In this document: positions 37,917-60,298 of the stretch, piece after piece
Layout of the letters: each line of letters opens with the position of its first letter
How positions within the stretch are numbered: the stretch's first letter is position 1
Assembly: GCA_017654735.1 (NCBI GenBank)
Contig: JADPYG010000088.1
Location: 3,844,001-3,908,000, forward strand
DNA: 64,000 bases
Source: Vishniacozyma victoriae
Lineage: Eukaryota > Basidiomycota > Tremellomycetes > Tremellales > Bulleribasidiaceae
Direction: 5' to 3'
Made by a program: the position numbers and the translations under genes
Notes under the pieces: model-generated
Seen by the model: the letters and a program-made list of their open reading frames with translations, nothing else
Databases searched by the model: none
Told to the model about the DNA's origin: nothing

Positions 37917-39934
37917 CTATTTGAGGGTTATTGGACGCCGGATATGTGGGCCTCGAAGCCTCATACCCTCACAAAGGTGCATACGCTCAAAATGGTGAAC
38001 TACTGCGAACCAGCCTCTATCATTTCCTCCCAGCCGAGTTTCCTCCAGCCGAGTGGAAGGAGCCCATACCACCGGCGGGATAGGAAGATGGACCAGCTCC
38101 CACTCGACCATCCCGAGATCCATATTTCGGCCCAGGTCCACTGCCTGTCTCATCCCTCGCCCGCGCGGGACCGAAGGCCGAGGAGTATGCCTCGACCATG
38201 AGCCCCGTGGCTCACGATCCACCCAGTCTGCAACCCTTCGCAAATCCGATACCCACGTACCACCACCCGACCTCTCTTGCCATTCGTCAACCAGCTCTCC
38301 CTCTTCCAACTCCACTTCCTGATCTTTCTCCACCACACCACTCTGCCTCATCTCTTCCATCTCCTTAGCCTGACGCTCGGCGGCGTTCTGTCCACTAGGT
38401 CTCCTCCTCTCCCTACTTTGATGACCGATGGCACTTGGAGCCCTGGCGACTCGATCTGTTCCAGTCGGGGAGACGAGACAACTTGAGGATACCATCGCAA
38501 GACAGGTGTACTGGGTCGGCTTCATAGGCGTTGGACTTTCATGCGATCGCAGAAGAGTGGGTCCGACGCTGGCGCTGGATCTCGCATCGTCAAGATCACG
38601 TCTCGGTGTTGGTGTGGTAGGCTCATCACCTTTTCCGTCCCCCTCCATCGAAACTCCTCTTCTTACCAATCCTGTTTGCCGTTCCTTTCTCTTCGATCCG
38701 ACTACCTTCGCGTCCGCCTTTTCTTTCTTTCCCATCTGTGGCTGAAATGGAGTAACGACTATCTTGTCCTTCAGTCGTGCGTTCTGATTCTCCAGTCCTC
38801 GTATGTTATTTTTCTGAGCGGCGATCTTCCGTTTTTGTTCTTTAATGGTCTCGTTCGAGGTGATAACGATTTTGTCTCGCTCGGCCTTGGCCATGAATAA
38901 GGCAGTAGTCTTGGCTAGTAATCGCGTCGATACAGTTTTCGTTTCCAGTTTAGATTTGGCAAGTAACGTTGAGAGGTTTCTATTCCCTTCGATCAATTTG
39001 GCGAGTTGAATCGATTTCATCTTGATGTCATCTGTTGATCTGGCAGATTCCAACTCTTGATCTCTGATTCGTTTCTCCAAGTTCCGAAGTTTGACTTGTG
39101 TTTCGGCCAATTGCCTTCGGACAGCGACTCGTGAAGGGTCGATCATTCGACTGGTTTCAGTACCATCTCTCGGACCAGTGGGTGTCCCGGCTACAGGTCA
39201 GCATCGATCCCGGGAGGTGATAAAAATAACATACGAGGAGGTCTGGAGCTCCTAGAACGGGTTTTCTGCGGTACTATGTCAAGGTTGACCAAGGTCTTGT
39301 TCCTTGCACTCTCCTTCCATATTTCCATGTGTGGAGCAGATTCAATTTCCAAACATGTCCGAATAGTACCTACAGCCACCATAAGTTGTTTCTCCCTATC
39401 AATTGCGTCCTTCTTCACTAGCGCCCTGAGCATGTCGGATGAAGCTTGTTGTAAAGTCTTGATCGCTTCGAGAGGGATTCCAGGTACAGATAAATCGGGC
39501 TGGACAATGGTGACCCTCTCGAGAGAGCTCTGAACAGGAGCGGTGCTGGTGTGGACCACGGCACTGGTAGAGTTCCCGTTCATGTAGTCGCTAGCAGTCC
39601 GAGATGTTGGTCCCGGAGAGGCAGAACTGATAGAGGAGTTGTCGACTAGATCTGCAATCGTAGTAGTGGTGTGGTTGGAGCTGGGTGAATCATGGAAAGC
39701 TTTGATCCTTTTATCGACTCGATCCCTCAGATCTTCGAATGCGCTTCGCTTCGTGATTGATCCAGAATCGGTGGTGAGGCTTGTGCTCAACTTGAACTGG
39801 GCAGAAGAAAGAGGTATCGTTGAGCTGAGGTTGGGGCGGTCAGGATGTGGAGAGAGGGTGGTAGCGGCGGGAAAGGCGAAAGCCGGGACTAGGGGAGTAG
39901 AGGGAACAGGCACTCCTGGTCTGATTTGGTTCAT
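37917..39934 (-). CDS. Array member A: NLS/coiled-coil family protein, function unknown
   Basis: Two exons: from ATG 39934 to an intron at about 39192-39236, then to the stop at 37917; about 655 residues. Residues 62-78 carry the basic pair (TKRSAFEDLRDRVDKRIKAF). The core reads LQQASSDMLRALVKKDAIDR then KQLMVAVGTIRTCLEIESAP. The intron is followed by GTPTGPRD, as in B and C. Exon 2 starts with a helix (RRQLAETQVKLRNLEKRIRD) and one coiled-coil module (IKEQKRKIAAQKNNIRGLEN). The 260-residue tail is disordered and ends RLRGPHIRRPITLK, without the HAQS-type ending of B and C. No known domain is recognised. Confidence 0.75.
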
Positions 39935-40040
39935 TTAGACAAGCTGGTACATAGTAGCTGTAGTTGGATATGATTAATAATAAGAAAGAGTAAGCTTGGG
40001 ATGAGTTAGCATCGAGGGCGTGTTTAGGGGCTACCAGGGG

Positions 40041-40068
40041 CCAGGTACGATCAATTTCACGCAGGTCA
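40041..40068 (-). promoter_or_regulatory. Shared upstream box of array gene A
   Basis: The plus strand reads GGTACGATCAATTTCACGC, about 110 bases before the start of A. It matches the box before H and I at nearly every base. Confidence 0.45.
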
Positions 40069-40396
40069 ATGCTCACTTTTGCCTTCGCTTGATTTAGCCT
40101 CTGAATACTCAGACACAGTTTTACCTACAGCGAGGCTGTTTCGATGGCTGCCTCGTCATTTGCCCCTTCCTGCCCTCATGCAATTAATTGTAGCTGCTCA
40201 TTATTGACAAGTGTAGTACCAAGACCTCTTTCGATGATTGCGTCACGAACAACATCGATTGCTGAACCGTGGGAAAGCGGATCACAACGATGGCAATGCA
40301 CAGCATGTAAGGGTGACGGACGACACAATTGGATATGCATACAGACAATATGAGGTATGGACTAGTGTACTCTTGATCGAAGACAAACACCGTCGC

Positions 40397-42441
40397 CTAG
40401 GTCTGCCAAGAGGAAGTTATAGATCCCGGCTCGAATTGAGCCGACTGGGCATGATAATGATCCCAATGTTCCCCTCGATCCTCGTGACCCCACTGGTCAG
40501 AACTAGGTTGACTATGATCCCAATAGTCTTCCCCAGGAATCGCATTCACGTATATACCCTCGCCATTATCCACTTGCCCTGCTCCCTCATGACCGACATC
40601 GGGATATCCCCATTGATCCTCGCCAGAATTGTCGGGAACCCATCCGTCGTCCGGCTCCAGGCTCTCGTCATGTGCTCCCCCGGAGGACGAAGAACGATCC
40701 TCCGTGGTCCTATGATCCCAGACTCCTCCTCGATTCATGCCCTGTCCCTCCGTCGAACCCCGTTCTCGACCAACTTCCTGCCCATCCTCCGATCGCTGAC
40801 GACACATTCTATCCAATAGACTTCGGGCGCCAGTTCGGGATTCGGAGGCGATCTTGCCATTGCGACCGGAGTTGGAACCGGTACTGAGTCCAGCGGCACG
40901 GTCGTCCTTTTTACCAGCACCGCCATACAAGCTGGGAATGTCTTCCCACCGTATAACATTTGATTTGACGTTGGGATCCGGAATCTCCCTAGCGCGATCG
41001 TTCCCTGTACCTCTCATATGAGGAGGAAGTTGTCGTTGGATCTGTCCTTCGTTCTTCCCAATTCTTGCTCTCGATGCCCCTTCAGATCGTCCTCGACCTG
41101 CCTCCTCTCTCGCCCTTCTGGCCTGTCCTTGCCCGGCTCCTACTTGTCCCGGTTTGCTGACGTTTTGTTGAGATCGCTTGTCCATCGCATCTTTCTTAAG
41201 TTTGGTGTTCTGCTTCTCCAGGCTCAATAATTGTACCTTCTGCCTATTGATGCGACCTCCTTGTTCTTGAATGGTTGTTTTCAGGGCGGCCACTTGGGGA
41301 TCCACCTGGGGTACGATAGGAGTAGGCGGAGGCGTGATGATCGATTCTCGAACCAATTGGGCGTTTCGGCTCTCCAGCTCTTGCATTTGCTTCTTCTGCC
41401 TTTCGATCTCTCCTTGTTTCTCGATGATCGTCTTATTCAAGGCGGTGATGGTGTCTTCCAAGTCGGGTTTGGGAGGAAGGGTAGCTTTCGTCAAGGCTAC
41501 AATTTGGATTTTGGCTTTGGCAAGCTGAACGCCAAGTCGTTTGTTCTCTTCGTCTGATCTTGCGAGTCGGACATGTGTTTCGGCGATGGTGGCTTCGTGT
41601 CGCTGGACGGTAGCTTGAGCTTCCACCAGCTCATCCCGGAGAGTGTCGCGTGATGGGCCGGATAAGTTGTTCCCATTGGTTCCTCTTGAACCGGTAGGTG
41701 TTCCAGCTGATGATCAGCAGGCGCCCCCTTGAGTATAGGACCAAACTTACATGATGGGCCGGAGGTCGTGGAGCCCGCGTATGACCGATCATTTTGGAGC
41801 ACCGATGCCCTCAGATCCTCCCTCCATAACTCCATATGTGGTGCAAACTGAATTTCAAGACATGTCCTCATTGTCCCTACAGCCACCATAAGTTGCTGCT
41901 CCCTGTCCGCAGCATCCCTCCTCACTAGTGCCTGGATCATGTCCGATGAAGCTTGCTGGAGTGTTTCGATCCTCTCAATTGGAATGAGGGGAACAGCAGG
42001 ACGAGCGAGCGGGACGGAAGAGGTATTAGCGTTACCCATAGGGCTCTGGGTTATGGCGTTGTGAGCGGCGGGACGAGATGATGTGAAAGAAGGTGTCTCA
42101 AGATGAGGATGATATGTATGTTGAGAGGTACGAGCCGACGTCGAATCAGGAATGGGTGGGGTACGCGACGCTCTGACCCGTTTACTGACTTCATCCTCCG
42201 GATCGATCAAAGCACTGCGTTTGGTCGACGAGGCTGAGGACAGACGTTTAGCATCTTGTTCGAGCCGAAGGCGATCTGCCAGACATAATTCAGGTTTGAC
42301 ATCCAGGTCCATCGAGCGGGAGGGGTGCCAGAAAGAATGTTGGGAGGCGGGCGGGTTTCGGAGGCCAAAACCTGGGATTCTCGAGTCGTTGGTTTTGGAG
42401 ATCCCGGATTCGCGTCCGTTTGGATTGGATGGCTTGTTCAT
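40397..42441 (-). CDS. Array member B: NLS/coiled-coil family protein, function unknown
   Basis: Two exons split at about 41710-41751, about 665 residues. The N-terminus has SRIPGFGLRNP, shared in weaker form with H and I. The basic motif (TKRSALIDPEDEVSKRVRAS) is at residues 73-92. The core is LQQASSDMIQALVRRDAADR plus QQLMVAVGTMRTCLEIQFAP. Exon 2 opens GTPTGSRG and then SRDTLRDELVEAQATVQRHE. The coiled-coil module occurs twice (IIEKQGEIERQKKQMQELES and IQEQGGRINRQKVQLLSLEK), an internal duplication also present in C. The acidic tail ends EHWDHYHAQSAQFEPGS, matching the end of C. The protein is probably nuclear. Confidence 0.78.
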
Positions 42442-42520
42442 GACCTGAGCTGATATGTTGATAGTTGGTAGTAGGTACTGATAGCGTAGATGAGAAATAG
42501 ATGAATAGGGAGTGAAGTGG

Positions 42521-42536
42521 TTGTGTGTGTGTGTTT
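42521..42536. repeat. GT microsatellite upstream of member B
   Basis: A GT run about 80 bases before the B start; on the coding strand it reads CA. Similar runs precede C, D and G. Confidence 0.7.
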
Positions 42537-43053
42537 CCAGCTACTACGTTTCACATTGGTGACTACGCAACCTCTTCGCATATCCGACCCATGCCATTTT
42601 CATTGCTACCTTCGGATGCGTCTTGCCCGCTTCGCGAACAGCAGGCAAACTGGTCTTGTGTTGATCATCTCCTCATTGTTTTGCCGACGACAAAGCCCCG
42701 CCCACGAAGTTGATCTGCTCGTGCTTCTCTACGTCACCGTGGGAAACTTGAGGACCTCGCTGAATGAGATGTCAGTCGTCGTGGTCATCTGCGACCGCTG
42801 GACAACTATACCAATTCATATGTCACCTAGTAATTGCCTTTCGCTACAAGCACATCGCTCATTCTTACAAAGGTAAGGTGTTCGACAAGGACTCCAACTT
42901 CACCCATTGAGTTCTGATATGTTTTCAGATGATATATTGTGTGATTTAGCAACTGCTAAGACGAGGCTAGACTAGTCTATATAACTCCTTACTCCTATAC
43001 AACTTTCCAAACCAGGTGTACGCGCATCGAAGACGTACACCTCTCCCACGAAT

Positions 43054-45108
43054 CTACCATTCGGTAGATGCTGGCCCCATCTCCGCCCGGACCGATTGGG
43101 CGTGATAAGGATCCCAAGGCTCCCCACCAGCTTTGCCCCACTGGTCATCCTTATCTTCATCCCCGTTACCACCGTCTTCCCCTGGAACGACATGGACATA
43201 TCCTTCGTCCTCAGGTACAGCAAGACCTTCTCCGCCCTCGACAGGAGTTGGAAACCCCCAGCCGCCCTCCACAGGATGAATTGGACCCCATCTGTCATCG
43301 GTCTGGATAGGATCCTCCTCAGGCTCGCCAGAGAAAGCCGAGATCTCACCCTCTTCTCGCCCTCCCTCCTGCTTGATCTCTTTTGTTTCCTGCCCTGGCT
43401 CCTGCTCCACCTGATCTCGCTGACCGCCTATCCTATCCCACAGACTTCGACCGTTAACAGCGATTCGATTGGAGCCGGTCCGAGATCTGGGTGGGATATC
43501 GATATCGACGCCACCCGTGGCAGCTTCACGGGATTCGGCGGAATGCTCGTCCCTCCTACTGGCATTGGACATCGATGCGATCAGACTTTCCACGGATTTA
43601 AGGAAACTCGGATCGACTTCGTTGCTTGCGATGGATCCAGCTTCGTCCCATCTACCATCCAAATGAGGAAGGATTTGTCGTTGGGGTTGTTGTCCTCCGA
43701 TATCACCTATCCTATTCCCCAGCGTTAATTTTACGTCCCTCTGCCCACCTCCCTGCACATTCGCCCTGTTCTCCCTCTGACCCACGGCATTCTGGTCCTT
43801 CTTCCTTGATCTCCCTTGACTTGGCTGGACATTCGCCTGTTTCTTCAACATGGCATTCTGTCTCTCGAGGTTCGACAGCTGTCCTTTCTGCCTATCGATC
43901 CTTCCCGCCTGTTCCTTGATGGTCTTTTTCAAGGCGGCTACTCGAGAATCGACTTTATCGACGACCGGCTTGGGTGGGGACTGCACAACCGTCTTTTGTA
44001 GTTTCGCATTTCTACCCTCCAATTCTGCTATGTACTTTCTCTGCCTATCGATCTTGCCGTTTTGCTCATCGATGACTTTATTCAAAGCAGTGACGGCGTT
44101 ACTCAAGTTGGGTTGGGGAGGAGGTACCGGTTTGGTTGATTTGATCGGGATCGACGCTTGAACTCTGGCCTTGGCGACATGAGTTGTGAGTCGATTACTC
44201 TCTTCTTTCGATCTTGCAAGTTGGTTGTCCTTGTCTTTTATGGTTTGCTCTTGTCGCTGAACGGTCGCTCGAGCTATTGCCAGATGATTCTGCAGGGTAT
44301 CCCGTACCGAATCGGGCGCGGCCTCAAGATCCCTCGGACCAGTAGGTGTGCCAGCTGATGTTCAGCAAACGCCCCTGTATTGAAGTCACCAATACTTACG
44401 CGTGGGGCCAGACGTGATGATGGATGATTGCTTGCCCTTCCCCTTGAACGATAACACCTGCGAGCCCTTCTGGTCGCCATTCGCTTCATCCCTCCAAACT
44501 TCCAAATACGGGATAAAATGGATATCGAGACAAGTCCTCATAGTCCCAACAGCTACCATGAGATGCTTCTCCCGATCCACCGCATCTTTTCTCACTAATG
44601 CATGTAGCATATCAGCAGAAGCTTGTTGTAATGTTCCAATCGCCTCGACTGGGATAGGAGGGGTCGCTCGAGGACCAAGTTGATACGGGGTGGTGATGAA
44701 GTCGTCCATCGGGCTATTGGTCGGCCAATCACCGCTCATCAAGCGAGGAGTCTGAGCTATGGGTGTATCAAGAATACAAGGGCGTAAGAGATGGGCAGGG
44801 GGGATCGTGATTGGCGTGGGGATAGAGGGATCATGTGACGCTTTGACCCGTTTACTGAACTCGTTTTCGTGATCGTCGTCAGCGCTTCGCTTGGTCGAGG
44901 CCCCAACAATATTGAGTTCAAGACTGGCATTGACGGGAGCAGGCAGCCCTAGTGCCGATGCTGCAGTCGTATCAGTCAAGCTTGAGGAGGGCTTGGAGTC
45001 TCGAGTAGGTTCGATAAGGGTAGAAAGATTCAGGTCTGAATCCTCGAAGTTGGTGAGTTGGGCGACATCCTGGTCGTCGGTGTTGTCTAGCTTTGTGGTT
45101 TGAGTCAT
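43054..45108 (-). CDS. Array member C: NLS/coiled-coil family protein, function unknown
   Basis: Two exons split at about 44356-44399, about 670 residues. The basic motif (TKRSADDDHENEFSKRVKAS) is at residues 72-91. The core is LQQASADMLHALVRKDAVDR plus KHLMVAVGTMRTCLDIHFIP. Exon 2 opens GTPTGPRD. Two coiled-coil modules (IDEQNGKIDRQRKYIAELEG and IKEQAGRIDRQKGQLSNLER) mirror those of B. The tail ends EPWDPYHAQSVRAEMGPAS. C and B are the closest pair in this group and probably the product of the most recent duplication seen here. Function is unknown. Confidence 0.78.
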
Positions 45109-45207
45109 TGTGTACTATGACATACCCAAGAGAGTAGTTATATAGTATTGGTTGATGTTGAGGTGAAGAAGCAATAGAAGAGGAAAGTGTGGAGCATGGC
45201 CGTTAAG

Positions 45208-45221
45208 GGTGTGTGTGTGTT
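45208..45221. repeat. GT microsatellite upstream of member C
   Basis: A GT run about 100 bases before the C start, at nearly the same distance as in B. Confidence 0.7.
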
Positions 45222-45652
45222 CCGAGGTATTGGGTTTCACTCAACACGACCCCACCTTCTAATTTCTCACGGCGGTTCCTCCTCACTCTCTGATAACTCA
45301 CACCTACCGCCTGAGAGTCAGCTCAGCATTGCTTGTGCTCGTCATCTAGCTGGCAAAAGAGCAAAAACATGCCTGTTCGGTATCTTGACACTGCTCGAGC
45401 TAACGATGAGAAAGTAGGTGACTTCACCGTATTGCGTGGTGTGGCCAATCGTCGAGGTCGACTGCGACCACTTGTAGAACTACAGGTATGCATACGACAT
45501 CCAACGCGTTCCATCACTCCAAGCTCATCTTCCATCCAGAACTTGTCCGATACGGAATCACAATGATCACCCATACGACCGACCCACGGCTCACAACTCG
45601 TGTCATTAGACCGTGGCTATCTTCCCGGTCTGCCTCAATGCGCTCCCTAAAC

Positions 45653-47521
45653 TCATCCTTCTGCCTCAATCTTCTTGGTTCCTGCCTGTGCAGAGTTGAG
45701 ACACGCATCCCAAGCATCCATACGCAATCTTGACGACTTATCGTCACTCCTTATGCCTTGTACTTGCCCTCGACCGCGCACCGCCATACCGCAATCATTC
45801 GGCATGACCCCCTCCACAGTCTTTGGGCCGGTAGGAGCTCGATTCAAGCGAGATGATTCGGAGGTTTGAGCGCATGTCGTCAATTCCATCTTGCTATTTC
45901 CGCTAGCGACAATATTGGGATTCTCGATGTTTGGCCAGCGCAAGATGAGTCGAACAGTGAGAGTGGTAAGATTGGTGTTGGTACCTTTTCCGGGTTTGGT
46001 AGTGATAGTGGTTTGCTTCTGACTGATCGAGACTCGTGATGATCCTGGGCTCGATCTACGAGGTCCATCGACGATCACAGGGCCCGGCGCATGTTGGCAT
46101 ATCGTGTCGCTCGGCCTTTCGAGACCCGCTGGGATTGCCTCTACCATCTTGGGGGGGAGTGCCGCCAATTTCGCGAACCTCTCGGCTGCCCTCGCCTTCC
46201 TCTGGGCTTTCTTGCCCGTCCCTGGCGGAGGTGATAGAACCGCACTCTTCGTATCGGATTTTGGGTCTTGCGGTTTAGGAGTATTGATCATCGGCATTGG
46301 GTCCGTTTGAGGAGTGACCGTGGATTTGACCGATTCGAGAATCGGCTGTGTGGAAGTAGAGTCGGCCGATTGCGATATAGAAGGCTGTTTCAAGGTCTGC
46401 TCGTACTTTCCGGCGTTGATCCCTTCGTCTTTTCTGCCAGCAGCTGCTCTAAAGTCGGAGCACTTCTCCGGTAACCCCTTGATGTGATTCGCTTGGTTGG
46501 CAATCTTGGTCCTTAGCGTTTCGATCGTTGACATCAAAGCAGCCATTTTGGGATCAGGAGTGGGTTTCGAACTGACTTGGATGGATCTGTTTTCGAGTTT
46601 CGCTTTGTAGAGTTCCCCCTCGAGACGGTGGACTTGATCATTCAATCCTGCATTCTCCGCTCGGATCGCCTCAATCTCTAGATCCTTCTGCTCCAGTACT
46701 GATTCTTGCTTTTGACGAAGTAGAACTAGGTCTCGTAAAGGACCGATACGCGATGACGAGATCAGACTGGACATGCTTGGACCATCGGGATTTTCAGCTA
46801 GGTATCAGTATGGTGATGTATGATGATAGGAGGACTTACTGGAGAGTCCTATCCCTCGAACATCATCTATCATAGATACTGGGCTATATGACTCCGGTGT
46901 GACCTCTCCGCTCTCCAGTGCAGACGGCCGCTCCACACCAGATCCAAAACATCCGAAATGACATAATCTCAGCGTTTCCATCGCGGCTGGTAAATGCCCC
47001 TCCACACTAGCTCGTTCCCCGATACTCAGAGCTCTCCCCATGGCTGTTAAAGCCTTTCGGGCTTCGACGATAGTACTAGAGATTGGAGCGATATCGATAT
47101 CCGAGTGAGTGGTTGACAGATTGACGAGCTGAGCGTCGATAGTGGAGGGAACATGTATGCTGAGGCGGAGACTTGAACGATTGTCGTTTGTATCCTCTAT
47201 CTGGCCATATACGAGCTGGGTTGATTGAGGCGTGACGTTGTTGGGAGGAGACGAAGTCGGAGTCGACGCGGGAGTAGACGCATCGTATGCTATCTTCACT
47301 CGTTTGGGGCCGTCTCGATAGGATTCGGACGAAGCGGCTCGCTTGTTAATATCATGTGAATTGAACCCGATTCCAGATCTATCGGGATTGATCTCGAGAG
47401 CCTTGGATTGAGGGGAGAAGTTGGTGGATCTGTAATATTGTTGATGGTGAAGTGGAACAGAGCAGGTGAGGGAAGTACAAGAGACACTCTCCCCTTCTGT
47501 AAATTGAGGGGAATGAAGCAT
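45653..47521 (-). CDS. Array member D: NLS/coiled-coil family protein, function unknown
   Basis: I chose ATG 47521 (MLHSPQFTEGESVSCTSLTC) because F starts in the same way (MLNSPRSMEDEGVSCTPSTS); an upstream in-frame extension to 47626 reads through a CA microsatellite and looks like leader. The basic motif is NKRAASSESYRDGPKRVK. The core is diverged (ALTAMGRALSIGERASVEGH, LPAAMETLRLCHFG). The intron lies at about 46799-46840, and exon 2 starts DGPSMSSLISSSRIGPLRDL, again as in F. The coiled coil covers about 120 residues. The C-terminus RLRMDAWDACLNSAQAGTKK aligns with F. D and F form a subfamily separate from A/B/C. Confidence 0.72.
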
Positions 47522-47601
47522 CTCGAGCAAGATGAAGAACGATGAGTACAAGTGAAGGGAATCAAGTACTCGGAGAAAAGGAGGGTTGAACCTAACTGGG
47601 C

Positions 47602-47619
47602 AGTGTGTGTGTGTGTGTG
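47602..47619. repeat. GT microsatellite upstream of member D
   Basis: A GT run about 80 bases before the chosen D start at 47521. On the coding strand it would encode an unlikely HTHTH stretch if the longer start were used. Confidence 0.7.
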
Positions 47620-47993
47620 GGAACACCGGTTCCTCGGTCCGGCCTCTGCAGCGTTTCTCGGAAGTTCCAAGTGGTTCATCAGACCATACATCCAGTTCCA
47701 GTGATGATACATGTAGCAGTATCCGTGGAAGATGACCAATAGATTGGCATTTCTCGATGTCTCTCCGGAACTTGATTCCTTCGTGCCTGCATCAACAACC
47801 CCATGTTATTGTCCAAAAGCCTGCTCTTCATGAGATAGATTGCTTCACGTCGAATGTCCCCGATGTGAGACTAAACATCAATACGGTCAAATGATGTTGA
47901 TTGATACAGAATTGTGACTGACCAAAAAGGTCTTTCGTTTGTGAGTGTGGGAAGCAAGAGGTGAAATGGCGCTAGAGTCGAAAGCAAGATGAT

Positions 47994-50260: not shown

Positions 50261-51904
50261 CTATTTCTCCCTCGACTTCTCAATGACTTTCCCTCCTGTG
50301 GATTTGGCGGCGAAAGGAGCGTTCCATAAATCCATACGCCAATGCGAAGGCGCATCGAGATCGTCCATCACAGGGCCTTGCCCTTGCCCTCGGTCATGGA
50401 TACCGCCATAGGTACCTGACTCGTCGTCATCCTTTTTCCAGTCGAGCGGGCTCCTCAGTCCGTTTGCAATACGTCCCGAGTTACCTGAAGCGGGGACACC
50501 GACGTGAGTAGCGACATCGTTCTCATTATTGTGATCTGCATCGTAAGGTGATTCGTGTTGAGAGCGCAAGATTGGTCGGACAGTAGGATGGGTACTAAAG
50601 CTCGCTTTGTTTCTTGGTCCGGTCGAGATGTGCCTGTAACTGGTCGAGCCTCGAGTCTTCTCCCAAATGGAGCTGGATTGAATTGCGTCGTCGCCCGATA
50701 CTTCCCGCAATTCCAGATCCGCCGCCGTAGCCTCTTGGATCCTCCCTGAGATCCTGGTCGCCAATGCATCCCCTTCCCACTTTCCGTCCGGTATCGTTCG
50801 ACTCGCGTAAGTCTCCTTGCTGATACGGGATGATAATGGCGGATTCGTACTCCTCGAGGCGACTGACGGTCCACCGAGCTTGACTATGACAGGGCTAGAT
50901 TGGCTTGACGAAGGCCCGGCGGGCGGGATCGACGGCAAGTGTGCCTCGATCTCTTCCTCCTTCCTCCTTCTCCACTTTCGCAGGAGGTTTCCGGAGTCGG
51001 CCTTCAACGTGTCACGTTCCTCCGTCAATTTCGCAATCTCGGAAGCTTGAGTCTCTATCTTCCGTCTCAAGTCTTCGTTCGATTGTCGCAATGCTGCCAG
51101 CTCGGAGATCGGTCTGGGCTGAGCGTGATTGTCGAGACTTGCATTCCTCAGCTCCAGATCCACGAGAATGATTCGTTTGTTGAGTTCTTCTTTCATCGCC
51201 CGCAGAGTCTTGATTTCTTTGTCTTCGATCTTGATCGCTCTATCTTGTTCCTGGCGCAAATTGACCAACTCCCGCAAGGGCACGATATTGGACAGATTGA
51301 TCAAGTTGGTCATGCCGGGACCGTCAAGACTCTTATCTAGGACATCAGCACTTGGTTCCACATGTGTCTGGGTGTACTTACCGAAAGGTGACATCCTTCT
51401 GACCTCTTCGATCAAAGATGCTGTGGTTCCCAATCCTTGGCTGCTCTCCCCACTCTGCTGAGCATTCACAATCGCTTTGGACATCGAAAGGGCTATTTCG
51501 GAGCCGGGCTGAGCAATGGACGACTCCGTAGGAGTGGTTGTAGCCGTGGTGGGAGTTGGGAGCATGAGATGAAACTCGGTAGGTATGTGTTCGTGCCTCC
51601 GACCTAGGTCGCTTTCCGATGGGTTTGTCTGGGCGGACGTTGATTGTGGGTCATCTGGCTCGAGATTTGAATCCGGGGAGCACGAGCCCAGTGTCATTCT
51701 GACCCGCTTATGATCTTCTTCTGACTCGCTGGAATCTCTTCGCCTGCTAGTCGAGGCGTCATTGGAGCTATCGCGAGTGGTGCTGAGCGGGGTGAAGACC
51801 GGTTGTGTGAAGCTGGAATCGCAGGTTTGGGGAGATCGGAACAAGGACGTTGATGGGGTGCAAGAAACGCCTTCATCTTCCATGGATCGAGGAGAGTTGA
51901 GCAT
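50261..51904 (-). CDS. Array member F: NLS/coiled-coil family protein, function unknown
   Basis: Start ATG 51904 (MLNSPRSMEDEGVSCTPSTS). The basic motif is SRRRDSSESEEDHKRVRM. The helical core is the most eroded of the family (IALSMSKAIVNAQQSGESS). A 45-nt intron at 51337-51381 has the family donor, a GCTGAT branch site and the same phase-1 position; it is a multiple of three without a stop, so its retention would simply add 15 residues. Exon 2 continues DGPGMTNLINLSNIVPLREL and a coiled coil (LRRKIETQASEIAKLTEERD). The C-terminus HWRMDLWNAPFAAKSTGGKV aligns with D. Spliced length is about 532 residues. Confidence 0.75.
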   Translation of the reverse strand: MLNSPRSMEDEGVSCTPSTSLFRSPQTCDSSFTQPVFTPLSTTRDSSNDASTSRRRDSSESEEDHKRVRMTLGSCSPDSNLEPDDPQSTSAQTNPSESDLGRRHEHIPTEFHLMLPTPTTATTTPTESSIAQPGSEIALSMSKAIVNAQQSGESSQGLGTTASLIEEVRRMSPFGKYTQTHVEPSADVLDKSLDGPGMTNLINLSNIVPLRELVNLRQEQDRAIKIEDKEIKTLRAMKEELNKRIILVDLELRNASLDNHAQPRPISELAALRQSNEDLRRKIETQASEIAKLTEERDTLKADSGNLLRKWRRRKEEEIEAHLPSIPPAGPSSSQSSPVIVKLGGPSVASRSTNPPLSSRISKETYASRTIPDGKWEGDALATRISGRIQEATAADLELREVSGDDAIQSSSIWEKTRGSTSYRHISTGPRNKASFSTHPTVRPILRSQHESPYDADHNNENDVATHVGVPASGNSGRIANGLRSPLDWKKDDDESGTYGGIHDRGQGQGPVMDDLDAPSHWRMDLWNAPFAAKSTGGKVIEKSREK

Positions 51905-52377
51905 TGTATTCTATATGATACGATGTATATGATGCGATAGATATGACACGATGTAAAGGTCAATGCATGGTGAGTGGAATGGGGACGAGATGAAGATTGT
52001 ATAGAGTTGGGCCGTCCAGGACATCGTAGTTGAATCAACCACGTCCTCTCAATTACCCATGGTCGTTTCCAAATAATGGTGATATGATCGGCCACCACTT
52101 GACTGTCATCTTTCTGCTTGGACTGTTGGTCTGATGAAAGGTATATAATGTGATCATTGTTGTGTTGTAATCCCTCAGCGCTGCGGTACAAAGTGTCAAG
52201 GTAGTGGAAGTGGACAAGACCGTGGGAGAGTGAGATCGCCTGGTCTATACTTGTGAAACCCTACTCTATGCATGTGACAGGGCTATGGAGGTTCCGGGTA
52301 TTCACTAGCACTGCTTTATCCAAACCAATACGACCCTTTCTGATATCCCGACCCTCACGTTTTCGTCCCCGCTGCCC
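51905..52377. promoter_or_regulatory. Spacer between array members F and G
   Basis: About 470 bases holding the F promoter and the 3' end of G. It has repeats of ATATGATACGATGTA-type sequence at 51910-51955. There is no GT run and no shared box. Confidence 0.35.
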
Positions 52378-54996
52378 TTACTTCCCTCTCGATTTGTTGG
52401 GGGAGTAGATCCCGCTCCAAGCTCGCATACGACCTTCCTTGGACTGCTCAATCTCCCCATGCTCCAGCTCGGCATCCTTTTTCCTTCTGGGAGTCGTATC
52501 GTTCTTCTCCCCGGAATTCACCGCACCTGTCCTTTTGCTTTCCATCCTTACAGCAGCCTCGGTGGTGTGTGGCAATGTCTGTCTTCCAAATGCCATCCTA
52601 GCGTCGTCCCACTTCCGATTGTCCTCTCTCATCCCAAGCGCCGCTCCCTTTCCCTTCTTCCCAGCCGATGCGTTTTGCGGAGCTGTGTTCCTTGCGATCG
52701 AAGCACTTGGGTGAACATCCATCGACTGGCCGGACGCCTTGACTCCTTCCGATTGGGAGGTGCATCGCGTTCCAGTCCGTCCTTGAGACTCCAGACGCGC
52801 GATGGCTGTCGTGATCGATGTTATCGTACGAAGATCTTTGGCAGGATTTGAATTCGTGATGCAATGCTTGATTTGTCTTATCAAACAATCTTTAGCAGAA
52901 TTTGCCTGCGTCAGGTCGATTATGGCCGGAGCGAGGTCGGCTACACACTGAACGTAGAGATCTTCCATCGTCCCTTCCCGAAGCTCCTTATCAGGGATAG
53001 CGAGACTCTCTTTCGTTTTGATATGCAACGCTCCCAGACGGGATCCCTGGGCGTCAATTTGTTTTCTCTGTTTCGATATGATTGAATTAAGAGCGATAAT
53101 TTCAGGATTCGACTTCGAATCTTCGACAGAGATCGGAACCTTTGTTTCTAGGGCTTCTCCCGCTCCTTCCTGTGCGCTTCGGAGTACTTGGTCGATCAAT
53201 GCTCGGTGTCCTTCTCGCAATGCGTGAGCCGCAGACCTGGATTTATACGTCGTCTTGATTTGCAGTTTGAGGTTCCCGATTTCCTTTATTGCTTGCTCCT
53301 GTACCTTCCGCATCATCTCCCTCTTACTAGCACAGGCAATCCTGGCACACTCGTCTGAGTCCTTCAATTGTTTCTTCAGATTCTCGACATCTCCGATATA
53401 TTGTGTTTCCTGCTTTCGCAAAGTGTCGATCTCGGAAACATGGAGGGACCTGACGGTCTGTATCTCATAGTCCTTCATCCGAACTTGAAGCTTAAGCTGC
53501 TCGATGGCGTCGGCCAACCTATCCTCTTCTTTCAGGGAGTCGGCGATTTCTCGTTCACGGGTCAACTTGGCGTTTTCGGTCATCTTATCGACCACTCGAA
53601 GCTTTCGTTTTAGGTCGGTGATTTCCCCGATTGCCTCGGCCTTCTCTTTTCGCAGTTGGTCGAGCTCGGCACTTGTGAGAGAGGCAGTTGGTTTAATCAA
53701 TCGAGAGTGGATTATGAAATTGTTGTTTCAGGCGGACAGCTGCTTCTGCAGATTTGTCCTTCTCGATTCGCATCGCATCGGTCGCAAGTCTGGAGGCGGG
53801 ACTGGCGGCCTCGGCTGATAAGACCGCGTCCTCTTTGTCTTTCAGGAGATCTTTGAGCTGTAAGACTTTTTCTTCCAATAGCCTCTTCTCTTCTCGTAGA
53901 ACGCCGTTTGAATCGTATTTGTTCTCAGCTTCCAGCTCTAGAGAGGCGACTTTGCCGAACCACTCCTTGTTCTGCTTTCGGCTTTCGCTGAGTTCGGTGC
54001 GCACTTTCCCGAGGTTGTCTTGCAGTACTTTGATTTGTTGTTCCTGTTCTTTGATAATGCTGTCTTGACGCTGTAGCGGTGCTGTGGTCGGATTTGGCTT
54101 GGGTGAAGTAATCGACTCGGCATTCTTTGGACTGGAAAGAGACCCAGCTATGGTGTCAGCTAACCCCTCTGTCAGGAAGCGGTTCAGGTCGTACCAGGCT
54201 TCGCCATTTTGTCTACCGGTAATAATCCCTCAATCCCTTCTGCCCCAGGCACAGATGTGCGCAACGCTTCCTTCCTTGACAATTGTCCGTCCTTCTCAAC
54301 CACCGCCAAGTGGATCTCCGGCACATCCTCAGTTGTCTCTGTCTCCCTCCCTAAATCCTCAGTCTCATTGGGGGCGAAGTGAGTGTCATAAAGTGACCAC
54401 AACGTCTCCATGGCCAGCAGAAGATGTCGCTCAACAGATTCCTCCCCTATCCTCCCGATCGCACTCTTCATATTTGTCAAAGCGCTCCTTGTCGAGGATA
54501 TCGCATCTTCCAGAGTGATGGCGACCTGTACTTCTTGTTGGGCGATTTTTGTAATCAAGGGTTTAGGTGTCGACAAGGAGAGTTGGGGCGAGTTGAAGGC
54601 TTTATTTAAGCCCATGAGCTTCGCTGTTCGTGTCCTTATAGATGCAGCATCCTGAGGAGCTTCTCCAGTCGCAAGTGATTGGGCAGGCCGACTTGGAACA
54701 CCACCGCTACTCTTAGTCTTGGCGCGTTTGCCGGTGGGGATATGAGAGGTCTTGGAGGCGCTTCGCTTTAGCGGTGGTAGGGGGACGATGATCTCAAGCA
54801 GATTGCTATCATCTCCGGGATCCGACTCTTCATCTCTGAGTGGAGTTGGTGATGGTGTCGGAAGCGTTCGGAGGGATTTCTCGTCGATTCTACCGCTAGT
54901 GCTTCGAGGTATTGCAGCTGGGACCGGCGTGTGGTGATGGGTCGGGTCTTCTTGGTAGATGTGGTACCCTAGGTTGGACTTGGGACCTCTACCCAT
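52378..54996 (-). pseudogene. Array member G: family member with a frameshift, possible pseudogene
   Basis: The ATG at 54996 (MGRGPKSNLGYHIYQEDP) is the first. The basic motif is LKRSASKTSHIPTGKRAK. The core reads ALTNMKSAIGRIGEESVERH plus LLLAMETLWSLYDTHFAPNE. The intron lies at about 54147-54193. Exon 2 then runs as coiled coil until a stop at 53693-53695. The coiled coil resumes in the +1 frame for 440 residues down to 52378. The switch must occur between 53695 and 53730, where I see no canonical donor/acceptor pair. The downstream frame is otherwise intact (ERIADSLKEED-like heptads, ending RAWSGIYSPNKSRGK). It is a recent frameshift, a sequencing error or, least likely, programmed shifting. 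As read, the gene is broken. Confidence 0.6.
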
Positions 54997-55092
54997 GTCT
55001 AAGATAGGCAATCAACGATGAAATGGAAGATATGTCAAGTTGAGTGAGATGTGAAGTTCAGCGGAAAGGAGGGTCGGTTAATTCGGGGGGAG

Positions 55093-55118
55093 AGTGTGTA
55101 TGTGTGTATGTGTGTATA
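55093..55118. repeat. GT/GTAT microsatellite upstream of member G
   Basis: A TGTGTATG-type run about 100 bases before the G start at 54996. Confidence 0.65.
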
Positions 55119-55454
55119 AGCATACTCTTACCACTAATGAGCTCGGCCGAAGCTTTAAGCTCTCCATATCTACTTCCCGCTGCATCTGCTACGATGGTCC
55201 CTCGCAAAGACGGTCCGACCTGATGAGTAGTGGTCGCGAGGTTTTGGAACAGAGCTGACAGTAAGCGTCAAGTTGATCCTATTGTGTTATAGCAATCTAC
55301 CGTGGGAAAGTGACAGCGGCAAAGTACGCTGTTAGGAGGAGCGGTTGTAGCTCCTCGACCCAATCCATGGCCATATGTATATCTCATGCCCAGTATTACT
55401 CCTACATATCCTCCTCCATGAAAGTAGGAATAGTGTACCAGCCTCGCCATCGCT

Positions 55455-56995
55455 CTACTCCAAATCCAACCTATCCGCCTGCATCCCCCCAAAACCATCT
55501 TTCGAATAATAATCCCCCCACCCATTGGTACTTGTGTACTGATGATCAATGTGAGGCCTCGACATGTACGTGGATTGAAGCCTCACCTGCGGGGCTCGCG
55601 GACCAGTTGGAACATATGGAGCCTCCTTCGGAGTAGATTGTGTTGATCTCTCCCAGTGGCTTCGGGAGTCATACGTATTCGAATTCCGCTTGCCGTAGCC
55701 TGCAAAGCTGCTGTAGTCGCCTTTTCGCTCACTAGTGTCACTTGCAGCTCGATAATCATGTTCGATCGCCGGCGTAGTCAGGGTACTGCTTGCACCGCCA
55801 TGACGCTTGTTCGGTTCCAGTCGAGGACTTTGCTTTTCCCACGATTCTTTCCGAGTCGGTTCGTATCTTTCCCCATGACCACGACCGCCGGCATCCCTGC
55901 TATGATCCTCGAGCCGATCTCCGTTGTTTTCTCCAGCCGAGATACCGGCAGACTTGAGCTTCTCCTTCAATGAAGCGTTTTGCGCTAGCAAGCTGTTGAT
56001 CTCGAACTTCTGATTATTCAACTTCTCGATATGATCTTTGTTGATTCGTTGTAGAGCCATCATCTCGGAAGTCGTAGATGATTTGGTAATGATGGCGGGT
56101 CTGACCGCCTCGGGTTGAGCTGAGATTTGAGTGAGTCGAGCGGTGAGTCGTTGATTCTCTTCATTCAATCGGGCGATTTCGTCGTCCTTGGTCTTGAGAT
56201 CTTGGGCCTGTTTCTCTATGGTGGATCGAGCAGCCGAAAGCTGTCTTCGTAATGCCTCTCGCGATGGTGGGACGCCGAAAGCCACGGATGTGGCAGACTC
56301 GGATTCCTTTGGGCTACTAGCGGTTGGTACTGCCGCGTTAGCTAACTGAACATTGTATAATAAGGAGACGTACCTTGTGCTTTCGGAACGGAGACGGAGA
56401 GCTGAGGCTTCAAAGAGGCTAGCACGGCAGATAATGGAGTCGTCTGTTGGTACTTTCTCGCTTCTGCGACCGCTTTCCAAGCGTCCATGTGTGGGATAAA
56501 GTCCACGTCCAAACAAGTCCTCAACGTCCCCACGGCAATCTGAAGCTGTCTCTCCCTATCATCTGCCCCTTTCCTGACTAGTGCCAACAACAAGTCTGCC
56601 GAGACTTGTGTAAGGGTCTCGATCGCTTCAAGGGGCCAAGGTGGACCTGTTGACGGTGTGGATCGAGATGGTACGGTCTCAGCAGGAGTTGAGGGCAGTC
56701 TGTTGGTTACGCATTCAGCCATAAAGTCACCAGCGGTAGCTTGGGTGAATGTTGGAGGAGATGCCGAGACTGGAGTAGGAGGTGGAGCAGTGATGGTGAC
56801 TGGTGACTCGAGTATGAAGGGTTTATGATCTGATTTAACGCGTTTGCCGAGATCGTCTTGCGGTTCATCTGACGCATAGCGTTTGGCGTTAGCGGTGATA
56901 GAGAAGTTATTTCGGTTGAAGTCGCTGGAAACCTGATCAGGTGGGGTAGTACGGGTAGAGTGATCTTGAAGAGGTTTGGGAGTGACGCGAGTCAA
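55455..56995 (-). CDS. Array member H: NLS/coiled-coil family protein, start uncertain
   Basis: Exon 1 is open from about 57034 but contains no ATG before the conserved basic motif (AKRYASDEPQDDLGKRVKSD); the in-frame segment upstream (PRIPGLTRVTPK) matches the N-termini of B and I. The coordinate given here is a TTG codon. The first in-frame ATG, at 56722, would remove the basic motif. An unseen upstream exon or a non-AUG start may apply. The core is LTQVSADLLLALVRKGADDR plus RQLQIAVGTLRTCLDVDFIP. The intron is 32 nt (56342-56373). Exon 2 has FGVPPSREALRRQLSAARST and one coiled-coil module (NKDHIEKLNNQKFEINSLLA). It ends NGWGDYYSKDGFGGMQADRL. Confidence 0.62.
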
Positions 56996-57200
56996 GCCGG
57001 GGATCCGAGGATCAACGGCGATGGGTATACCTTTTTAATCGTATAGAGTAGCTTGAGGTGGTATTGGCATTCTCGAGGTAGGCGTGATATGCGTTTATAC
57101 GTGAGGGAAAGTGAGTAATATAGATGAATGAGAAAAGAGTTGAAGATGAATGAGGGGCGGCATGTTGGTTGATTCTTTCCAGGATAGGTTGGAAAGGTAA

Positions 57201-57220
57201 GGTACCATCAATTTCACACA
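57201..57220 (-). promoter_or_regulatory. Shared upstream box of array gene H
   Basis: The plus strand reads GGTACCATCAATTTCACACA, about 200 bases before the presumed H coding start. It is the best match to the consensus seen at A and I. Confidence 0.5.
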
Positions 57221-57648
57221 ACGCTCCACTCATACATTTTAACTCACATACCGCGGCGGTAGCTTCGAACGCTGTATATGACTCTGTTCATAAGCAGCAT
57301 CTCCTCGCCGTTCAGTCAGCTATCTTGATGCTTGATCAGCGTCAATGTCATGTTTGAGTCAACTGTTTTGTTCAGGATGAATCGCGTCACTCAACTTAGA
57401 TTGTTGACCGTGAGAAAGTCCGACACCGTCTGTGGCCTGCACACCGAGATATCTATCGTTGGCATAGTATTCTCGCATGAACAATAAGAGTAAAACTATA
57501 GGCAGAGTCCACCACATCAATGGTTCATATAACGTCCAACTCCCCCACCGGCCCTTCACCAAACACCCGCGGGTAACAAAATGCATCCCCTGAGCTCCAA
57601 CACCTCAACCCATCCTGTTGTACCGATTCAGCATTATTTCCCAAGTAT

Positions 57649-60298
57649 TTACTTCGAATAGTATGCCCCCTTTCCTCCCTCATTCCTCCTACTTGCATCC
57701 AATGGGAGGCGCGGATCGATAGGTGGCGGGATTGGGCCGATTGGGGGGGTTCGAGGTCGATCACTTCGAGGTCCGGTAGGTATGCTCTTCTTGACCTCGG
57801 CTCGAGATCTCTCCCACGGACTTCGAGAGTCTTTACCCAAGTCGGAAGCGCGGACAGCTCTCGAGCCACCTTGAACTACGATGGTTGTACTTCTACGTCG
57901 CGTGCGGACTTCCTTGGGGTCGATTGGACTGCTAACTCGAAAATCGCTTGGGTTTGGATTACTCGAACCGAGAGGCAGTCTCTGTGGACACGATGGATCC
58001 GGGGTGGTCCGAGGTTCATTTGAAATTGATCTGGTAGAGCTGAGTCGCCTACTCGCCTTCTCGGCAACGAGCTCCGTGAAGTCGGCCATGAGATTGGCCA
58101 TTTTATCAAGTCCACCGCTTGTCCTCCTTGTATTGCTCAAAGGCGCCTGCGGAGACTGAGCATGACCTCTGATGCTGAAAATTTTGGTAGGAGTCGTGGG
58201 GCGTCTGACAGGAGTCGTTCGACCGTCTTCCTCTCGATCCCTATCTCCATAATAATCGATCTCGGCTCCTGCTCCGTCTCGAAAGCCTCCCTCCTCAGAA
58301 TCTGTGACCGGGGCTCTCCCGTAGTCAATTTCCACACCATTGTCATTATTTGATCTCCTCCCATCTTCCATTCCTCGTACCTCTTCATGTGTGTCGTCTT
58401 CCAAGCCGGATAATATCCCATTTGATTGGAGGAGATCCCTCAATCGGATATTACGGGCGTGTTTGAGTTCAAGCTGCCTCTGCAGATACTCGATTTCCTT
58501 CTTGTGAACCTCAATACCCTTTGACATATTACTGATAGACGGATGTCGGACGGGTGTTCCGACAGGTTGAGCCTTCAACGCTAGCGCCAACGTACAACTC
58601 TCCCCCTCCAAGTCCTTGAGCCTCGCTTGCAATCGAGTAATGACATTATCCTTGCGTTTAAGTTCCTCCGCTTGCGCCCTCAATTTTTTCGCCTGATTGT
58701 TGATGGTAACCTTGGCGGAGGAAAGGTGCTTTTGGACATTGATTTGTTTCTCGACAACATTACGCCCAGGCGGTACACCAAGGGGGTATTCGGGTATATC
58801 GGGCTTTTCAAGAATAGGGACAATCGCTAGAGTCATCAGTCGGCTCGAGCTGAATAGAGTGGAGAGACTTACTTTGAGGCTGAGGTATCGAGAATGAAAT
58901 ACGTTGAGCTTTGGGGGCCTCCAGCTCAATCGGCGTGATTGTTTGTATCGCCTTGGTTGCCATATCATTCCCCTTGGGCGCCATCACCATCGCCGCTTCG
59001 CGCCTCCTCGCATCCGCCCTCCATAAATCCATATAAGGGACAAAGTGAGCTTGAAGACAAGCGCTCATCCTTCCAGCAGCAGCAAATAATTGATTCTCAT
59101 TGCTCGAAATCACTCCCTTCCCTAGCACCATAAACAGATCTGCCGAAACGCTCAGAAGGGTACCAATGGCGTCGAGAGGTATCGGAGGGACAGTGGGTTC
59201 AGATGCAGGGGACGATTGGTCGGCGACAGCTCCGAGCTCCATGCTTGGCGTTACTGAACTTGTGCTGTTGGCCAAGGCGGTGACAGGAGCAGTGGCGGGG
59301 GTGAGAGGCGGAGTTTGGTTCTCGGTTTCAAAGCGATACGAAGCTGATGACTGGAGAGGTTGAGGCGCTGGGACTCGATCCGACGAATGTGTCACTTGGT
59401 TCCAGGAGGTTTTAATGACGGTATTGATTGGAGGGTCTGGGATCGTAGCCGAGGACGAGTTCGTATCGGCAGTGACTGGAGTCTGCGGCGGAGTCGGATT
59501 CGCTTGACGGCGGAAAGGCGGCGAAGGTACGACAGGAAGTGATGGTGGGACATTGGAGGAGGGGGTTTGAGTTGGCATTGATTGTAGTTTGTAATTTTTC
59601 TGCGGAGTATTGATTCCTTGTTCAGATGCTTTGGCAGTGGTTTTCGAAAGGGCGGGACGGGGACTAGCGACTGCGGAAGTCAAAGGTCTCTTCCTACCGA
59701 AGATCGCCAAGAGAGCAGCTTCGGCTGGGTTGTCGGGTCTTGGGGCGTTGAGAATTTGAGGTGGTTCTCCTTGTTCGACTGGGTGATTCGCGACTGTAGC
59801 GGAGAGCGGGACAGTGATCGCAGCTGCTGGAATCGGAGCATAATTCGAACTTGATCCTATTGAGAGGATTGACGAACAGGGAATCTGGACTGGAGTCTGA
59901 GACCTGGAACCGGTTGGAGTATGAGTATTTGATCGGTTGTTGATATCGTTGAGAGGGCTGTTGGTAGAAGGCGGGACGAATCTCGGATCAACAGCTTTCG
60001 GTGTAGGAAGTCGAGGAGTGCTGTGCACAGAGGGAGCAGGCGATTGAGAGCCACGGGTCGATACGTCGCGCGAGGAAGTTGGTAGATGGTTCGATTTTGG
60101 CCGTTTAACATCATCGACGGGAGTGGTATCCACCTTTCGTTTCGAGCTAGCGCTAGATATACGGGGTTGATGCTTGATTGATCTCGGTGCGAAAGCGGGA
60201 TCGGTGAACCTACTATATGTGCCGAGTGTCAAGCCTGGGATCGAAATTTCGGCGGGGGTAGCGCTTTGACCATTTCGATTCGGTTGGACGGGGGCCAT
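57649..60298 (-). CDS. Array member I: NLS/coiled-coil family protein with long Pro/Ser/Thr insert
   Basis: ATG 60298 (MAPVQPNRNGQSATPAEISI) leads to the family IPGL block, then the basic motif SKRKVDTTPVDDVKRPKS at residues 52-69. About 290 residues of Pro/Ser/Thr-rich disorder follow, longer than in any other member. The core is diverged (LLSVSADLFMVLGKGVISSN, LFAAAGRMSACLQAHFVPYM). The intron lies at about 58827-58871. Exon 2 has LGVPPGRNVVEKQINVQKHL as in H, a coiled coil (IEYLQRQLELKHARNIRLRD) and an Arg/Pro-rich tail ending GGKGAYYSK. Total length is about 850 residues. H and I form a pair. It is the outermost member, next to the coronin gene promoter. Confidence 0.74.

What the first reader, a model, noticed from the sequence alone, without database searches (positions are those of the whole stretch)
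37917..60298. Eight-member tandem array of an unrecognised nuclear coiled-coil gene family
Seen: eight same-strand genes with a common plan (basic bipartite motif, helical core, phase-1 intron, coiled coil, disordered tail) but strong divergence outside these parts. Known: tandem arrays that diverge this quickly are typical of genes under birth-and-death evolution or genetic conflict. Inferred: a lineage-specific nuclear family, perhaps regulatory, chromatin-bound or involved in selfish or mating processes. I cannot place it in any known family.
Basis: partly seen in the sequence, partly recalled or inferred. Interest (0 to 1): 0.9.

Follow-up and report, generated by a model that had tools for sequence, protein, structure and literature searches.

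The report
Tandem nuclear coiled-coil genes, CSL-site promoters
A yeast, apparently of the Cryptococcus group, carries eight neighbouring related genes for unknown, probably nuclear proteins that look like rod-shaped scaffolds, and seven of the eight have upstream the DNA site recognised by CSL factors, gene regulators best known from animal Notch signalling.

Summary
The array is real. Eight minus-strand genes (37917-60298) each have a basic bipartite motif and one 42-47 nt phase-1 intron. Seven of eight keep a helical-hairpin core; G5 has lost it. An unrelated gene interrupts the array between G4 and G5. G6 has a frame break; G7 has an in-frame stop just after its likely start. Pfam and PDB sequence searches gave no family beyond coil-type matches. 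Nine searches of the held genome found whole copies only here. The 72 relatives found (sources ena, jgi, lgn) give G1, G2, G3, G5 and G6 each their own orthologue-like group; the core is 86-90% identical within the G1-G3 groups. This looks like an old lineage-specific family rather than a fast-turnover conflict family.

New: 7 of 8 promoters (450 bp) carry a strict CSL-factor consensus, YGTGRGAA, against 4.7% of other 450-bp windows here. All six CCGTGRGAAA of the 64-kb window lie in these promoters. TTTCCCACGGT occurs 39 times in the held genome against 3 for its reversed control; 14 of the 36 other sites have an MBF core within 120 bp, but the array's own promoters are not enriched for it.

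Best reading: co-regulated nuclear dimeric scaffolds, perhaps tied to growth or division. Protein function is inferred.

The parts
37917..39934 (-). G1: exon 1 39934-39235 (bipartite motif, core), 44-nt phase-1 intron, exon 2 39190-37917 (coil, tail), 657 aa
40267..40276 (+). G1 promoter CSL-type site CCGTGGGAAA
40397..42441 (-). G2: exon 1 42441-41751, 44-nt phase-1 intron, exon 2 41706-40397, 666 aa
42737..42746 (+). G2 promoter CSL-type site CCGTGGGAAA
43054..45108 (-). G3: exon 1 45108-44400, 45-nt phase-1 intron, exon 2 44354-43054, 669 aa; core hairpin residues 154-214
45263..45272 (-). G3 promoter CSL-type site in the other orientation (TTTCTCACGG on +)
45653..47521 (-). G4: exon 1 47521-46840, 42-nt phase-1 intron, exon 2 46797-45653, 608 aa; degenerate core
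47616..47623 (+). G4 promoter CSL-type site TGTGGGAA (a second at 47946-47953)
50261..51904 (-). G5: exon 1 51904-51382, 45-nt phase-1 intron without stop, exon 2 51336-50261, 532 aa; core lost
52219..52230 (-). G5 promoter: CTCTCCCACGGT, one mismatch to the shared element; no strict CSL site
52378..54996 (-). G6: exon 1 54996-54195, 47-nt phase-1 intron, exon 2 from 54147; frame ends at 53693, coil continues in another frame 53727-52378
55300..55309 (+). G6 promoter CSL-type site CCGTGGGAAA
55455..57070 (-). G7: likely start 57070 with in-frame TAA at 57037-57035; exon 1 to 56374, 44-nt phase-1 intron, exon 2 56329-55455
57408..57417 (+). G7 promoter CSL-type site CCGTGAGAAA, with GACGCG close by
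57649..60298 (-). G8: exon 1 60298-58873 (long N-terminus), 46-nt phase-1 intron, exon 2 58826-57649, 867 aa
60691..60700 (+). G8 promoter CSL-type site CCGTGAGAAA
47994..49416 (-). unrelated gene that interrupts the array (extent by eye)

Best explanation
The array encodes one family of nuclear scaffold proteins in a tremellomycete-type yeast. Each protein enters the nucleus by its bipartite signal, pairs through the exon-2 coiled coils, and uses the helical hairpin (about 60 residues) to hold a conserved partner, while the disordered N-terminus and tail vary between paralogues and set specificity. The genes arose by tandem duplication before the sampled lineages split and have since specialised: G1-G3, G7 and G8 keep the core, G4 and G6 keep a divergent one, G5 has lost it. 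They are switched together through CSL-type sites (GTGRGAA) in their promoters, so they are probably made with a growth or cell-division programme. Shown: gene plan, relatedness, orthologue-like groups, core conservation, confident hairpin model, promoter sites. Inferred: nuclear location, pairing, partner binding, that a CSL factor is the regulator, the cell-division link.
For: Gene plan and introns; bipartite motif in 8 of 8; leave-one-out profiles against shuffles and control ORFs; hhalign. Clades (bootstrap/SH-aLRT): G1 100/100, G2 99/100, G3 100/100, G6 98/99, G7+G8+P0026+P0027 99/99. Core 86-90% identical within the G1-G3 groups against 60-62% for their N-termini. AlphaFold of G3 exon 1: the six 10-residue blocks of the core have pLDDT 87-97, two helices; the other blocks are at 61 or less. 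Model of P0036: hairpin plus helices 274-320, 337-376 and 391-429. Promoters: the best shared 12-mer of the 8 upstreams is CTTTCCCACGGT, in 5; 100 shuffled sets reach at most 3. Strict YGTGRGAA in 7 of 8 upstream 450-bp stretches against 4.7% of other windows, binomial p 4e-9; all 6 CCGTGRGAAA of the window lie in array promoters. TTTCCCACGGT 39 times in the held genome against 3 for the reversed control. CSL consensus GTG(G/A)GAA and two CSL genes in C. neoformans (passages of PMC1973085). The fission-yeast CSL probe contains CCGTGGGAAA (passage of PMC3598750).
Against: The PF09271 search of the held genome found no CSL factor; the family rang in none of the 14 control genomes, so this is inconclusive. 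G5 lacks a strict site. MBF cores are not enriched in the array's own promoters (ACGCG in 4 of 8 within 700 bp at a background of 0.86 per kb). Of 60 reading frames scanned beside the other sites, 20 had a Pfam match, and these are mixed, many metabolic or membrane proteins. Promoters of paralogues are not independent, and the 4.7% background includes coding DNA, so the p-value is too small. No expression, localisation or binding data. The two-helix hairpin has no specific structural match.
Confidence: 0.45

Rival explanations
1. A selfish or conflict family (meiotic driver, mating or incompatibility genes) kept by birth-and-death evolution.
For: Tandem array with strong paralogue divergence (17-31% identity to G1 over the whole alignment); a hybrid relative P0047 with a G3-like front and a G2-like rear (3 contigs, sources jgi and lgn); loss of the core in G5; broken frames in G6 and G7; relatives that look frame-shifted, such as P0038 (by eye).
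Against: Separate well-supported clades for G1, G2, G3 and G6 with relatives; core 86-90% identical within three groups; several subfamilies apparently on one contig in a relative; promoter site in 7 of 8.
Confidence: 0.12
2. Transcription or chromatin regulators: the proteins bind DNA or a DNA-bound factor directly and act as paralogous regulators.
For: Basic motifs in all eight and long helices after the core.
Against: The basic motif lies in the other exon, before the core and far from the coil, so the layout is not that of a bZIP; no DNA-binding domain with a convincing score among the families shown (25 of 29).
Confidence: 0.2
3. Structural proteins of chromosomes or of the division machinery (kinetochore, spindle pole, SMC partner), made in S phase under a CSL plus MBF programme.
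For: At the 36 other sites of the 11-mer GACGCG occurs 20 times within 100 bp against 2 times at 100-200 bp. MBF-paired sites include those beside condensin subunit Cnd2 (L054) and between Nse4 and a phosphoesterase that reads like Mre11 (L058). The ACGCGT box marks periodic replication genes in C. neoformans (passages of PMC5137879).
Against: MBF cores are not enriched in the array's own promoters; 22 of the 36 other sites have no MBF core within 120 bp, and the neighbours are mixed. In fission yeast none of the motifs proposed for periodic transcription is related to the CSL element (passage of PMC4569565).
Confidence: 0.2
4. A decaying array: most members are pseudogenes and the promoter sites are relics of duplication.
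For: G6 frame break, G7 stop, G5 core loss.
Against: Six of eight (G1-G5, G8) are open over 532-867 aa with GT-AG introns; groups of relatives keep the core; upstream regions show no blastn similarity at E 1e-4, yet the site is kept.
Confidence: 0.08

Closest known systems
Fungal CSL (Cbf11/Cbf12-type) target genes
   Same: Promoters carry GTGRGAA sites, in six of eight genes as CCGTGRGAAA; CCGTGGGAAA is in the probe used for fission-yeast CSL proteins.
   Different: The genes here are a lineage-specific coiled-coil family; fission-yeast Cbf11 is described as an activator of lipid-metabolism genes and a cell-cycle regulator (abstract starts and passages). Binding is not shown here.
G1/S (MBF, ACGCGT) gene sets of Cryptococcus neoformans
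   Same: Elsewhere in this genome the exact 11-mer clusters with GACGCG/ACGCGT.
   Different: The array's own promoters are not enriched for the MBF core.
wtf-type tandem killer gene families (recalled)
   Same: Clustered paralogues of unknown biochemical role, some broken.
   Different: Most members here have a stable group of relatives; the two-product killer design was not tested.
bZIP transcription factors (recalled)
   Same: Basic stretch and coil in one protein.
   Different: Basic motif and coil lie in separate exons with the hairpin core between them.

Membership tests
One homologous family (G1-G8) | exon 1 related to that of the other seven | tested here: met
   7 of 8 in leave-one-out; G5 fails (E 28) but joins through G4 (hhalign E 5e-10)
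One homologous family (G1-G8) | exon 2 related to that of the other seven | tested here: met
   7 of 8 in leave-one-out; G6 fails (E 0.92), tested only up to its frame break
One homologous family (G1-G8) | same phase-1 intron | tested here: met
   8 of 8
One homologous family (G1-G8) | bipartite basic motif in exon 1 | tested here: met
   8 of 8
One homologous family (G1-G8) | helical-hairpin core in every member | tested here: not met
   7 of 8, weak in G4; not found in G5
Known Pfam family | match to a curated non-coil domain in all members | tested here: not met
   8 members scanned, 25 of 29 families shown; none in more than 3 members; best SlyX 2e-7 in 3, which I take for a coil match
CSL target genes | GTGRGAA element in promoter | tested here: met
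   7 of 8 within 450 bp; G5 has only a one-mismatch form of the shared element
CSL target genes | organism encodes a CSL factor | tested here: inconclusive
   no hit with PF09271 in the held assembly; family rang in no control genome
CSL target genes | CSL protein binds and regulates the genes | not testable with these tools
   needs ChIP or a deletion strain
G1/S MBF regulon | ACGCG cores enriched in the promoters | tested here: not met
   ACGCG core in 4 of 8 within 700 bp (G3 a full ACGCGT), about what 0.86 per kb predicts
bZIP factor | basic region directly before the zipper | tested here: not met
   basic motif in exon 1 before the core, long helices in exon 2
Selfish killer family | biased transmission | not testable with these tools
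   needs crosses

The most novel reading that the evidence does not exclude
In this basidiomycete lineage a Notch-independent CSL factor, partly together with MBF, runs a chromosome or division programme whose lineage-specific output is this tandem family of nuclear coiled-coil proteins; the hairpin-plus-coil proteins would be new structural parts of the dividing nucleus.
Probability: 0.22. Interest if true: 0.78.

Novelty: new variant of a known kind. Interest (0 to 1): 0.52.

Why it matters
Lineage-specific tandem families are common, but their function is usually opaque. Here old, diverged paralogues keep the same regulator site while the rest of their promoters shows no detectable similarity, which hands the experimenter a regulator to test. 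What CSL factors do in fungi is much less understood than in animals (passage of PMC4569565); this array would be a compact set of candidate targets in a basidiomycete, and the genome-wide association of the exact site with MBF boxes suggests a cell-cycle role that can be tested directly.
Full report
Organism. The window lies on a 5.39-Mb contig of an 11.58-Mb, 17-contig unnamed assembly. One exon of its acetyl-CoA synthetase matches PDB entry 5ifi best (87 bits against 60 for the next), which I recall as Cryptococcus neoformans. I treat it as a tremellomycete-type yeast; the species is not known and the assembly may be incomplete.

The observation. Splicing eight minus-strand genes with GT-AG introns gives G1 (39934-37917) to G8 (60298-57649). 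Each has one intron of 42-47 nt in phase 1 and a bipartite basic motif [K/R]R-x(10-11)-KR in exon 1. Leave-one-out profiles built from the other seven genes give exon-1 scores of 24.6 to 135 bits for seven genes, where the best of 1000 shuffles was at most 10.7 bits and the best of 213 control ORFs at most 10.9; G5 scores 0.7. Exon 2 gives 28.8 to 90 bits for seven genes (shuffles at most 11.4); G6 scores 4.9. G4 and G5 are sisters in exon 1 (hhalign E 5e-10). G8 and G6 match the profile of the core-bearing group (3e-17 and 5e-9), G4 weakly (3e-4), G5 not in the core. So the family is real, but the core is in seven of eight. The run is interrupted by an unrelated gene. G6 and G7 carry apparent breaks that could be real or assembly errors.

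Relatives. Three protein searches found 72 related proteins (P0001-P0072: 30, then 36 and 6 new), sources ena, jgi and lgn, none with a precomputed Pfam domain. They are single exons or fragments, as expected of fungal genes called on metagenome contigs. A tree of 58 rows (51 of 72 relatives and 7 window genes; G5 and 21 relatives that are exon-2, G5-type, short or front-less rows left out; G8 cut to its core half) places G1, G2, G3 and G6 each with its own relatives with strong support; 25 of 55 inner branches are starred. Long branches, G4 and G8 above all, are unsure. Exon-1 identity of window gene to relatives is 59-92% (G3, 12 relatives), 56-87% (G1, 8), 58-90% (G2, 7), 68-84% (G6, 8), 66-79% (G5, 8) and 49-52% (G7, 2). 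Mean identity inside groups is highest in the core for G1-G3 (86-90%; G1 basic motif 87%) but higher in the N-terminus and basic motif for G5 and G6 (81-93%) than in what follows, so the subfamilies are constrained in different parts. Equal longest-contig lengths (31,221) suggest that P0014, P0038, P0049 and P0059, of G1, G3, G6 and G5 type, lie on one contig; this is an inference from the tables. P0047 has a front like G3 and a rear like G2 (76% to G2 over residues 69-168), a likely product of unequal exchange, or an assembly hybrid.

In the held assembly whole copies were found only at this locus.

Structure. AlphaFold of G3 exon 1 with 32 sequences gives a confident helical hairpin (helices 154-172 and 176-214) in a chain of otherwise low confidence. 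A model of P0036, a relative whose intron reads through, adds three long helices after the hairpin. No specific fold match. I ran no coiled-coil predictor; the coil rests on these helices, the coil-type Pfam and weak PDB matches and the sequence. Tail motifs by script: RSxW(D/E)R in G3, G7 and G8, with RSLLDR in G2, RGSWSR in G1 and SIWEK in G5; a PTGPR-like motif in seven of eight, at the start of exon 2 in G1-G3 and in the tail in G4, G5, G7 and G8. Their meaning is unknown.

Promoters. Comparing 450 bp upstream of each start, the best shared 12-mer is CTTTCCCACGGT, in five of eight with one mismatch at most; 100 dinucleotide-shuffled sets reached at most three. Window-wide it has 5 matches at one mismatch, all upstream of array genes (G1, G2, G5, G6, G7) on the same strand, 0.30 expected. 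Its reverse complement holds CGTGGGAA, the CSL consensus GTG(G/A)GAA (PMC1973085, passages). A literal search of papers for the letters found 649 papers; of the ten listed, five, including the first three, are Notch/CSL papers. The gel-shift probe of the fission-yeast CSL paper contains CCGTGGGAAA (PMC3598750, passage). Testing this outside consensus, strict YGTGRGAA occurs within 450 bp upstream of 7 of 8 array genes and in 4.7% of other 450-bp windows (binomial p 4e-9; the promoters are not independent because the genes are paralogues, and the other windows include coding DNA). CCGTGRGAAA occurs six times in 64 kb, all upstream of array genes: G1, G2, G3, G6, G7 and G8. Upstream regions show no blastn similarity at E 1e-4, apart from CA repeats (masked) and a second short element.

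Genome-wide the exact TTTCCCACGGT occurs 39 times against 3 for the reversed pattern; three of the 39 are in the array. At the 36 other sites GACGCG occurs 20 times within 100 bp and twice at 100-200 bp (2.78 against 0.28 per kb); 14 of 36 sites have an ACGCG core within 120 bp against 15.7% of control positions (binomial p 7e-4). ACGCGT is the SBF/MBF motif of periodic replication genes in C. neoformans (PMC5137879, passages). Neighbours of MBF-paired sites include condensin subunit Cnd2 (L054) and Nse4 facing a phosphoesterase that reads like Mre11 (L058, the Mre11 name by eye). Of 60 reading frames scanned beside the sites (of 72 chosen), 20 had a Pfam match, and many of these are metabolic or membrane proteins. 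The array's own promoters are not enriched for MBF cores. So the CSL-type site is well supported; the division link is a lead. A CSL factor was not found in the held assembly, but that search was not informative.

Conclusion. An old lineage-specific family of probably nuclear coiled-coil proteins with common CSL-type promoter sites.

Noticed in passing
L038 4984-5148 (own genome, contig C12 near 526,683-526,847): A 168-bp stretch about 70% identical to G7 exon 2 lies inside what reads, by eye, like a Zn2Cys6 transcription-factor gene, out of its frame: a stray fragment of the array.
   Followed up: partly
own genome, 39 sites: TTTCCCACGGT is 13-fold commoner than its reversed control, and at 13 of the 36 other sites an ACGCG core lies within 50 bp: a possible composite CSL/MBF element.
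   Followed up: partly
L008 1501-1776 (own genome, contig C12): Weak match (E 0.05, 30% identity) to the N-terminal part of G3 in a 634-aa open frame.
   Followed up: no
window 40043-40054, 57200-57211, 60459-60470: TTGAT(G/C)GTACCT upstream of G1, G7 and G8: 3 matches against 0.39 expected, 1 of 100 shuffles reaches 3.
   Followed up: no
window, upstream of G2, G3, G4 and G6: CA repeats about 90-120 bp before the start.
   Followed up: no
G2 and G3 exon 2: The last coil module seems to be present twice in these two genes and once in most others (by eye).
   Followed up: no
P0010 and P0011: Two G3-type relatives share a seemingly identical rear half but differ in front: exchange between copies or assembly hybrid (by eye; 85% identity overall).
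   Followed up: no
P0022, P0024: Source names 'uncharacterized coiled-coil protein SlyX' and 'predicted component of type VI protein secretion system' look like misannotations of fungal exons called as bacterial genes.
   Followed up: no
window 60750-63215 (+): A coronin-like gene (WD40_4 match; rest by eye) and, by eye, a dUTPase-like reading frame flank the array.
   Followed up: no
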